From Candidatus Gastranaerophilales bacterium (GTDB lineage Bacteria; Cyanobacteriota; Vampirovibrionia; Gastranaerophilales; Gastranaerophilaceae): a DNA stretch of 47,586 bases. Where the stretch lies: assembly GCA_944323535.1 (NCBI GenBank), contig CALUSW010000007.1:1-47586 (forward strand). Direction: 5' to 3'. Below are positions 26,276 to 28,088 of the stretch, in pieces; position 1 is the stretch's first letter; each line of letters opens with the position of its first letter. Position numbers and translations under genes: made by a program. Below the pieces are notes generated by a model. It made no database searches, had not been told where the DNA came from, and saw only the letters and a list, made by a program, of their open reading frames with translations.

Positions 26276-26343
26276 AAAAAAAAGCCGTCCAACTAAGGCG
26301 GCTACTAGACTTTGGGGAGGGAGGTTTTATGGGCTTTATACCC
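26276..26343 (-). ncRNA. predicted 68-nt antisense small RNA
   Basis: On the minus strand a TATAAT (26354-26349) precedes a predicted start at 26343. The RNA would open with a GGG-TATAAAG-CCC hairpin (26343-26331), then 27 unpaired nt containing ACCTCCCTCCCC. It ends in an intrinsic terminator (AGCCGCC-TTAGTT-GGACGGCT plus a T run, 26303-26276). The -35 is poor. The C-rich segment is complementary to Shine-Dalgarno sequence and lies opposite the start of a 28-codon ORF. The shape recalls cyanobacterial Yfr1, but homology is not claimed. Confidence 0.6.
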
Positions 26344-26415
26344 TTGACATTATATACATCGGCATTTATTTTTATAACTTTAATTTTTTGTTTAATTTTT
26401 TTTATAAAAAAGTAA
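26329..26415 (+). CDS. 28-residue hydrophobic peptide (possible type I toxin)
   Basis: ATG 26329 is preceded at 4 nt by a run of purines, GGGGAGGGAGG, the strongest Shine-Dalgarno in the window. The frame encodes MGFIPLTLYTSAF, then an almost wholly hydrophobic stretch ending FFIKK and TAA. The form (one membrane helix, basic C-terminus, under 30 residues) resembles type I toxins and other small membrane proteins. Its Shine-Dalgarno and first five codons are covered by the predicted antisense RNA. No homology is known to me. Confidence 0.5.
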   Translation: MGFIPLTLYTSAFIFITLIFCLIFFIKK

Positions 26416-26495: not shown

Positions 26496-28088
26496 ATGAA
26501 AAAGTTTATTATTAATAATAAATATAATTGTCTATTCTTCATTTGTGCATTTTTATTTATATTTTGGCAGACAATAATATATAATGCCGTTGATATGGAC
26601 TATTGGGCAAGACTTTTACAGGGTTTTGCTTTTTTAGAAACGGGACATATCTTAAAAAACGATATATTTTCCTATACAAATACACATTTATGGCTCGATC
26701 ATGAATGGGGTGCAAGTATTATTTTTGCCTTTATACATAAAGGCGGATATCTTTTTATTTTATTATTTAAATCACTGCTTGTTTTTTTGACGTTCTTTTT
26801 TATGTATCTGGCGGTTAAAGTCAGACTTCAAAATAAAGAAAATTTTACTGATATAGAAAAAATCAGGCTGAATAATTCAGTGTCGCAGCCTACCGCAGGC
26901 TCACCGCCGCAGTCCGGTTTCTCTTTTAATATTGTATATTTTATATTGCTTGTATTTGCTATGCCTACAATTACGCAATCATGGATTAGATGTCATTTCT
27001 TCACTTTTTTATTTTTTTCTTTTTGTATATATATACTTGAAAAAGTCAGACAAAGTAATAATTATAAACTATTAACCGTACTGCCTGTTTTAATGTTATT
27101 CTGGGTTAATATACATGGCGGCTGCGTTTCTCTTCTCGGATTGCTTGGAATCTATATTGCAGGTGAATTTTTAAATAAGAAATCCGTTAAATATTATTTA
27201 TTTACTTTATTATGCTGTCTGGCGGTTATGTTTATTAATCCTTACGGATTTGATTATGTTAAATTTATTTTTACGGCAACAACAATGCCCCGTCCTTTTG
27301 TTACGGAATGGATTAGTCCGTTTATGCATTCTGATTTAAATTTTTTCATTATATTTAAACTGATATATATAATAAATTTGATAATATTAATAATTAATCT
27401 GAAAAATTTAAAAAAAGATTTTACAAAATATATTTTACTCGCTGTTTGTGCTTATTTGTCTTTCAGATATATAAAAAATACTCCTTTTTTTATAATTACT
27501 TCGGTCGTATTTTTATACGAAAATTTGTTTGGCTTGTTTGAAAAAATAAAGTTTAATCCCAAATATCTGCCCAATTTAGCTTGTATCATATTGATTATAG
27601 TTTCTCTGTACAACATACATAAAAATTCTTTCATGTTAGTATATCCAAACTTATCACAGCAGCCGGTTGAAATAGTTAAGTTTATAAAAAATAACAATCT
27701 AAAAGGGAATATTATGGCTCCTTTTGACATGGGAAGCTATATTGCATATAAACTCTACCCTGATAATTTAATTTATATGGACGGACGATACGAAGAAGTT
27801 TATTACAACGAGACCAAAAAACTGCTTGATAACTTTTTTATGGCAACAGAGAATTGGGATAAAATATTAAATTCAGATATTATACACGATTATTTGATTA
27901 TTCCGAATGATGCTATGGTGGATGAATATATGAAAAACCGAAAAGATTATAAAAAAATCTATAAGGATAATACTAATTCTATTTATTCAAGGACAGATAA
28001 ATTAAAAAATATTTATGAACTTCCCGTAAAGAAAATAAAAGCCGGGACTTTTCAAGAGGCATTTTCAACAAACGTGAAATTCAAATAA
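26496..28088 (+). CDS. polytopic membrane protein, GT-C/PMT-like
   Basis: This 530-residue protein has about ten membrane helices in residues 10-365 and a soluble C-terminal domain (about 375-530). The first loop carries DMDYWARLLQGFAFLETGHI, then DIFSYTNTHLWLDHEWG, a pattern common in GT-C-like membrane proteins with a Asp-Trp and an HEWG motif. The C-terminal region has MAPFDMGSYIAYKLYP and IYMDGRYEEVYYNE. A lipid-linked sugar transferase role is a guess. A repeat fragment encodes part of a loop near residues 128-141. Confidence 0.7.
   Translation: MKKFIINNKYNCLFFICAFLFIFWQTIIYNAVDMDYWARLLQGFAFLETGHILKNDIFSYTNTHLWLDHEWGASIIFAFIHKGGYLFILLFKSLLVFLTFFFMYLAVKVRLQNKENFTDIEKIRLNNSVSQPTAGSPPQSGFSFNIVYFILLVFAMPTITQSWIRCHFFTFLFFSFCIYILEKVRQSNNYKLLTVLPVLMLFWVNIHGGCVSLLGLLGIYIAGEFLNKKSVKYYLFTLLCCLAVMFINPYGFDYVKFIFTATTMPRPFVTEWISPFMHSDLNFFIIFKLIYIINLIILIINLKNLKKDFTKYILLAVCAYLSFRYIKNTPFFIITSVVFLYENLFGLFEKIKFNPKYLPNLACIILIIVSLYNIHKNSFMLVYPNLSQQPVEIVKFIKNNNLKGNIMAPFDMGSYIAYKLYPDNLIYMDGRYEEVYYNETKKLLDNFFMATENWDKILNSDIIHDYLIIPNDAMVDEYMKNRKDYKKIYKDNTNSIYSRTDKLKNIYELPVKKIKAGTFQEAFSTNVKFK
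26879..26917 (-). repeat. repeat fragment inside a coding sequence
   Basis: A GC-rich 39-bp stretch sits in the GT-C-like gene. It starts agtgtcgcagcct, matching agtgtcgcaacct at the left end of the 47,127 island. It is in frame and encodes SVSQPTAGSPPQSG in a cytosolic or periplasmic loop. The island's same frame starts SQPAAD, supporting common origin. Confidence 0.6.

What the first reader, a model, noticed from the sequence alone, without database searches (positions are those of the whole stretch)
26276..26415. Candidate type I toxin-antitoxin locus: 28-residue hydrophobic peptide and a 68-nt antisense RNA
After mnmG, a purine-rich Shine-Dalgarno sits 4 nt before ATG 26329. The 28-codon ORF encodes one hydrophobic helix ending in KK. 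On the opposite strand, TATAAT (26354-26349), a 5' GGG/CCC hairpin, an unpaired stretch with ACCTCCCTCCCC and a T-tailed terminator define a 68-nt RNA. It covers the ORF's Shine-Dalgarno and first five codons. A small hydrophobic peptide with an antisense RNA over its ribosome site is the type I layout. Alternatively the RNA is a trans-acting anti-Shine-Dalgarno regulator of Yfr1-like shape. The antisense -35 is weak.
Basis: partly seen in the sequence, partly recalled or inferred. Interest (0 to 1): 0.72.

Follow-up and report, generated by a model that had tools for sequence, protein, structure and literature searches.

The report
Conserved small RNA of gut Melainabacteria
Just after mnmG, on the opposite strand, lies a gene for a roughly 70-nucleotide regulatory RNA that almost every sampled genome of this order of gut bacteria (Gastranaerophilales) carries, that looks switched on by the flagellar sigma factor and exposes a sequence able to cover ribosome-binding sites; the neighbouring 'toxin' reading frame is an accident.

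Summary
The 28-codon frame is not a gene: in its own genus it shrinks to 4-21 codons or loses its start, and it vanishes elsewhere. The minus-strand RNA is real. A covariance model finds it in 144 of 146 genomes of the order (40 of 40 genera); neighbouring genes differ, so it is a free-standing, presumably trans-acting RNA. It has a covarying 5' hairpin, an unpaired anti-Shine-Dalgarno core ACCUCC(C)UCCCCAA(A)GUCU, and a terminator. Two genomes of another family of the class carry homologues. Upstream is a sigma-28 (FliA/WhiG) type promoter, TAAAGTTA-N11-GCCGATGT, conserved in diverged copies; a FliA/WhiG sigma gene is in every genome, even where flagellin is absent. No Rfam family matches, and I found no paper on it. 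Best reading: a sigma-28-controlled, Yfr1-shaped sRNA that represses mRNAs by pairing with their Shine-Dalgarno regions. Transcription, sigma dependence and targets are untested; there is only one weak target lead.

The parts
26276..26350 (-). small RNA gene (5' end inferred between 26350 and 26343)
   Evidence: covariance model match 26349-26276, E 1.3e-19; same RNA in 144/146 genomes of the order
26375..26382 (-). -35 element of a sigma-28-type promoter, TAAAGTTA
   Evidence: TAAAG + CCGATA with at most 1 mismatch in 69 of 127 copies versus 0.65 expected from shuffles; consensus TAAAGTTT-n11-GCCGATAA (PMC2859248)
26356..26363 (-). -10 element of a sigma-28-type promoter, GCCGATGT, 11 nt from the -35 element
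   Evidence: as above
26349..26354 (-).
26331..26343 (-). 5' hairpin GGGU-AUAAA-GCCC
   Evidence: predicted here and in 124 of 125 copies; mean z -4.1 against dinucleotide shuffles, every rung with several pair types
26314..26325 (-). unpaired anti-Shine-Dalgarno core ACCTCCCTCCCC
   Evidence: conserved in all copies, also in the BLAST-derived ones; begins like the 16S rRNA tail
26303..26313 (-). conserved stretch AAAGTCTAGTA between core and terminator
   Evidence: AAGUC also kept in homologues of another family of the class
26276..26302 (-). intrinsic terminator, GCCGCC...GACGGC hairpin plus T8
   Evidence: mean z of the terminator segment -3.2
26329..26415 (+).
   Evidence: frame not kept in relatives: 4-28 codons in the genus, absent or random elsewhere

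Best explanation
The minus strand at 26350-26276 encodes a free-standing, trans-acting small RNA of about 68-75 nt, the window's copy of a family spread through the order Gastranaerophilales and present in at least one further family of the class. RNA polymerase carrying the FliA/WhiG sigma factor (sigma-28) transcribes it. A 5' hairpin and a 3' terminator frame an unpaired C-rich core, ACCUCC(C)UCCCCAA(A)GUCU, that copies and extends the anti-Shine-Dalgarno tail of 16S rRNA. The RNA pairs with ribosome-binding regions of selected mRNAs and lowers their translation when sigma-28 is active, tying gene expression to the state of the flagellum, or of the flagellum-derived export apparatus that these bacteria keep. 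Shown here: existence, structure, conservation, promoter match, presence of the sigma gene. Inferred: transcription, sigma-28 dependence, pairing with mRNAs, repression, and which mRNAs.
For: RNA in 144/146 genomes and 40/40 genera of the order. 5' hairpin in 124/125 copies, mean z -4.1, several pair types on each rung; terminator in all. Core kept in BLAST-derived copies and in two genomes of another family of the class. No constant neighbour, so a free-standing gene. Sigma-28 consensus with the right 11-nt spacing in 69/127 copies within one mismatch versus 0.65 expected, 26 of 48 diverged representatives. FliA/WhiG gene in all 146 genomes, over the cut-off in 142. Same motif 36-69 nt before four flagellins of flagellated relatives, and 17 versus 2 control sites in the own genome. 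Core starts with the anti-Shine-Dalgarno string of the own 16S rRNA.
Against: No expression data. Targets not found: in G034 the core does not pair better with start regions than shuffled cores do, and only one gene in one genus has a long perfect site. Why AAGUCU-R-GUAG is conserved as well is unexplained by Shine-Dalgarno pairing alone; a protein could bind there. Part of the copy set was collected with the core as bait.
Confidence: 0.72

Rival explanations
1. Type I toxin-antitoxin locus: the 28-residue peptide is a membrane toxin and the RNA is its cis-acting antisense antitoxin.
For: Shine-Dalgarno, hydrophobic frame ending in KK, and an antisense RNA over the start, in this one genome.
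Against: Frame length 4-28 codons in the genus, start lost in some copies, no matching frame in other families although the RNA is kept. The kept first codons are the complement of the RNA hairpin. The RNA has a constant core but changing neighbours.
Confidence: 0.02
2. The RNA acts mainly by binding a protein (or the 30S subunit) through its conserved unpaired stretch, like a sponge or decoy, rather than by pairing with mRNAs.
For: Conservation extends past the Shine-Dalgarno complement into AAGUCURGUAG; no order-wide mRNA with a long complementary site; pairing energies with start regions are not enriched in G034.
Against: The best conserved part is an anti-Shine-Dalgarno string, which has an obvious partner in mRNAs; C-rich unpaired motifs of this type act by pairing in RsaA; the remaining string does not imitate 16S rRNA beyond chance.
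Confidence: 0.2
3. The RNA is transcribed by the housekeeping sigma factor from the TATAAT at 26354-26349, and the TAAAG/CCGATA pair has another meaning.
For: A perfect TATAAT stands at a suitable distance from the hairpin in the window; similar A+T-rich strings in many copies.
Against: TATAAT itself is not conserved, whereas both elements and the 11-nt spacing fit the sigma-28 consensus; the same motif stands before flagellins; FliA/WhiG is as universal as the RNA.
Confidence: 0.1

Closest known systems
Yfr1 (Rfam RF01116) of photosynthetic cyanobacteria
   Same: Two hairpins around a 16-20 nt unpaired stretch with an ultraconserved C-rich motif, 3' hairpin a terminator, similar size (54-69 nt), near-universal in its group (PMC2190773); both cores contain CUCCUC in most copies.
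   Different: Motif ACUCCUCACAC is absent; the Yfr1 model does not find this RNA, and finds Yfr1 in photosynthetic genomes but in none of 13 genomes of this class over the cut-off; sigma-28-type promoter here.
Sigma-28-dependent sRNAs: UhpU, MotR, FliX, FlgO of E. coli; CjNC1 and CjNC4 of Campylobacter
   Same: Small RNAs controlled by the flagellar sigma factor (PMC10578931; PMC4626219).
   Different: The E. coli ones are UTR-derived; this one is a free-standing gene, in another phylum, and is kept in genomes without flagellin. No sequence match in Rfam.
C-rich, Shine-Dalgarno-masking sRNAs such as RsaA of Staphylococcus aureus
   Same: Unpaired C-rich motif complementary to ribosome-binding sites, expression by an alternative sigma factor (PMC3961350).
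   Different: Unrelated sequence and anatomy; targets proven for RsaA, unknown here.

Membership tests
Type I toxin-antitoxin system | Conserved small toxin frame | tested here: not met
   Frame 4-28 codons in 16 same-genus copies, start lost in some, random elsewhere
Type I toxin-antitoxin system | RNA whose conservation follows the toxin it is antisense to | tested here: not met
   RNA kept in 144/146 genomes with other neighbours and no such frame
Type I toxin-antitoxin system | Toxicity of the peptide, relieved by the RNA | not testable with these tools
   needs expression in a laboratory strain
Yfr1 (RF01116) | Two stem-loops separated by a 16-20 nt unpaired stretch, 3' one a terminator | tested here: met
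Yfr1 (RF01116) | Ultraconserved undecanucleotide ACUCCUCACAC | tested here: not met
   core is ACCUCC(C)UCCCC in all copies listed
Yfr1 (RF01116) | Match to the curated covariance model | tested here: not met
   no match at this locus; no genome of the class over the cut-off, photosynthetic genomes are
Sigma-28-dependent sRNA | Sigma-28 promoter, TAAAGTTT-n11-GCCGATAA | tested here: met
Sigma-28-dependent sRNA | FliA/WhiG sigma factor encoded in the genome | tested here: met
   146/146 with a match, 142 over the cut-off
Sigma-28-dependent sRNA | Expression lost without sigma-28 | not testable with these tools
   no expression data
C-rich Shine-Dalgarno-masking sRNA (mechanistic class) | Unpaired C-rich motif complementary to Shine-Dalgarno sequences | tested here: met
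C-rich Shine-Dalgarno-masking sRNA (mechanistic class) | Identified mRNA targets at ribosome-binding sites | tested here: inconclusive
   no excess over shuffled cores in G034; one 11-nt perfect site in genus g11

The most novel reading that the evidence does not exclude
This RNA and cyanobacterial Yfr1 descend from one anti-Shine-Dalgarno RNA of the phylum's ancestor, or are a striking parallel: same anatomy, CUCCUC in the core, complementary distribution in the genomes tested. In the non-photosynthetic branch it came under the flagellar sigma factor and stayed there even where the filament was lost, so that a flagellum-derived export machine now feeds back on translation.
Probability: 0.15. 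Interest if true: 0.8.

Novelty: new variant of a known kind. Interest (0 to 1): 0.62.

Why it matters
The paper library holds no report that I could find of a regulatory RNA in this non-photosynthetic sister group of the cyanobacteria, which lives mostly in animal guts. This one is nearly universal there, short, and easy to look for in metatranscriptomes. It links an alternative sigma factor, kept even in species without flagellin, to control of translation, and it invites a direct comparison with Yfr1. It also warns that a tidy small reading frame opposite an RNA gene can be a mere shadow of the RNA.

Tried and rejected
Type I toxin-antitoxin: rejected because the frame decays in relatives. 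Rfam membership: nothing at gathering score, and only meaningless matches at E up to 10. Yfr1 by model: not found. Covariance hits in photosynthetic cyanobacteria: the seven inspected were a tRNA plus terminator (two), one without the core, others without the anatomy; treated as chance. Hits in other families of the class: G359 and G356 are real, G293, G335 and G348 are not convincing. Imitation of 16S rRNA beyond the anti-Shine-Dalgarno string (AAGUC..GGUAGCCG): not clearly above shuffles, p 0.03-0.8 depending on scoring and copy. A conserved genomic partner: none. A shared target with long complementarity across the order: the pattern CTTGGGGAGGA finds mostly the RNA gene itself. CsrA-type sponge: no conserved GGA loop motif in the copies listed.

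Full report
What is in the window. The features reported at 26276-26415 are all present. On the plus strand GGAGG stands four bases before an ATG that opens 28 codons. On the minus strand there are a TATAAT, a small GGG/CCC hairpin, ACCTCCCTCCCC, and a hairpin followed by eight T. A DNA search of 28 relatives matched 27. Within the genus the match spans about 150-200 bases; in other families of the order it shrinks towards the stretch of the minus-strand RNA. No Rfam family fits at a meaningful score.

The reading frame. In 16 copies from the same genus the frame opposite the RNA is 4 to 28 codons long, starts with TTG in two, and has no start in one. The first codons persist because they are the complement of the RNA's 5' hairpin. 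Over all 127 copies the lengths scatter from 1 to 80 codons.

The RNA. The copies share one anatomy; one extracted match, L048, does not and was left out. Among 125 copies a 5' hairpin is predicted in 124 and a 3' hairpin in 125. In 48 diverged representatives the 5' hairpin is far more stable than dinucleotide shuffles (mean z -4.1; terminator segment -3.2), and every rung of the stem shows several pair types (GC, CG, AT, TA), while the unpaired core hardly changes. A covariance model finds the RNA in 144 of 146 genomes of the order and 40 of 40 genera; one or two copies are usual in the window's family, up to six in others, at times side by side. The window's own match is 26349-26276, E 1.3e-19.

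Beyond the order. The model gave weak matches elsewhere in the phylum. Those inspected in photosynthetic cyanobacteria are chance or tRNA-plus-terminator matches. In two genomes of another family of the class (G359, G356) they are real: 5' hairpin, AACCUCCUCCCCAAGUC, terminator. So the RNA is older than the order.

Promoter. In 69 of 127 copies TAAAG and CCGATA occur with at most one mismatch; shuffled sequences give 0.65. Among 48 diverged representatives it is 26. The favoured spacing (85 copies) is that of TAAAGTTT-N11-GCCGATAA, the sigma-28 consensus given in PMC2859248. The window reads TAAAGTTA-N11-GCCGATGT at 26382-26356. The two homologues outside the order have TCAAGTTT-N11-TCCGATAC and TCAAGAAA-N11-GACGATAG. 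All 146 genomes have a FliA/WhiG match, 142 over the curated cut-off. Four of 19 flagellins of flagellated relatives carry the motif within one mismatch 36-69 nt before their start, against 0.15 expected. The own genome has 17 such sites against 2 for the reversed control, about eleven of them shortly before a reading frame; in G034 the excess is small, 13 against 7. The own genome and G034 have no flagellin match. That this sigma factor uses the motif is an inference.

Context and mode of action. The RNA lies after mnmG in the window; in other genera it lies by a prs-like gene, by a histidine kinase, or elsewhere, and the commonest neighbour family is shared by only 27 loci (names from my own reading of the sequences). 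A free-standing RNA that keeps a core complementary to Shine-Dalgarno sequences while its neighbours change is best explained as trans-acting. Its core begins with ACCUCC, as the own 16S rRNA ends (GGATCACCTCCTTTC). In G034, read almost completely, the pairing of the core with 1,734 start regions is not stronger than for shuffled cores, so most genes are not special targets. One site stands out: CTTGGGGAGGA, an 11-nt perfect complement, at the ribosome-binding site of a beta-lactamase-domain protein in genus g11. It is kept only among close relatives and is a lead, not a result.

Relation to what is known. In anatomy the RNA is a near double of Yfr1 (PMC2190773). By membership tests it is not Yfr1: other motif, no model match, and the Yfr1 model finds Yfr1 in the photosynthetic genomes tested but in none of 13 genomes of this class over the cut-off. 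In control it resembles the sigma-28-dependent sRNAs of E. coli and Campylobacter, in likely mechanism RsaA, a sigma-B-dependent sRNA whose C-rich motif masks a Shine-Dalgarno sequence. I found no paper on regulatory RNAs of this group in the library. I rate it a new variant of a known kind.

Limits. Nothing here shows transcription. Part of the copy set was collected with the core as bait, so the invariance of the core in that part is not independent evidence; the BLAST-derived copies and the homologues outside the order are. The genomes are mostly metagenome assemblies, so absences are soft.

Noticed in passing
L237:3582-9133, L284:16342-18635, L285:2467-3291 (genome G034): A genome without flagellin keeps FliF-, FliH- and FlhA-like genes and FlgB/FlgC/FlgFG-like rod genes, the latter close to the FliA/WhiG sigma gene. 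An FlhA-like protein below the flagellar cut-off is found throughout the order, true FlhA in 51 of 146 genomes: possibly a filament-less, flagellum-derived export apparatus.
   Followed up: partly
L198, L199, L203, L204, L209, L211, L212, L214 (own genome): Sigma-28-type promoters 15-40 nt before genes of unknown, acidic or low-complexity proteins without an evident signal peptide; possible substrates of such an export apparatus.
   Followed up: partly
C2:10432 and C2:12465 of G034: Two adjacent paralogous proteins of 621 and 762 residues starting MGMSAGQARLLSVTARLTDNEL, each 39 nt after a sigma-28-type promoter.
   Followed up: no
window 26496-28088 (+): A 530-residue hydrophobic protein without a Pfam match follows the RNA gene here and in 14 same-genus loci.
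   Followed up: no
G031:C1:78383-78617, G035:C16:6319-6757, G046:C87:6940-7305, L115: In some families the RNA gene is multiplied, with copies side by side within about 160-360 nt.
   Followed up: no
G034:C1, minus strand, start of a 391-residue beta-lactamase-domain gene: Ribosome-binding site CTTGGGGAGGA is an 11-nt perfect complement of the RNA core and is kept in G047 and G059; candidate target.
   Followed up: partly
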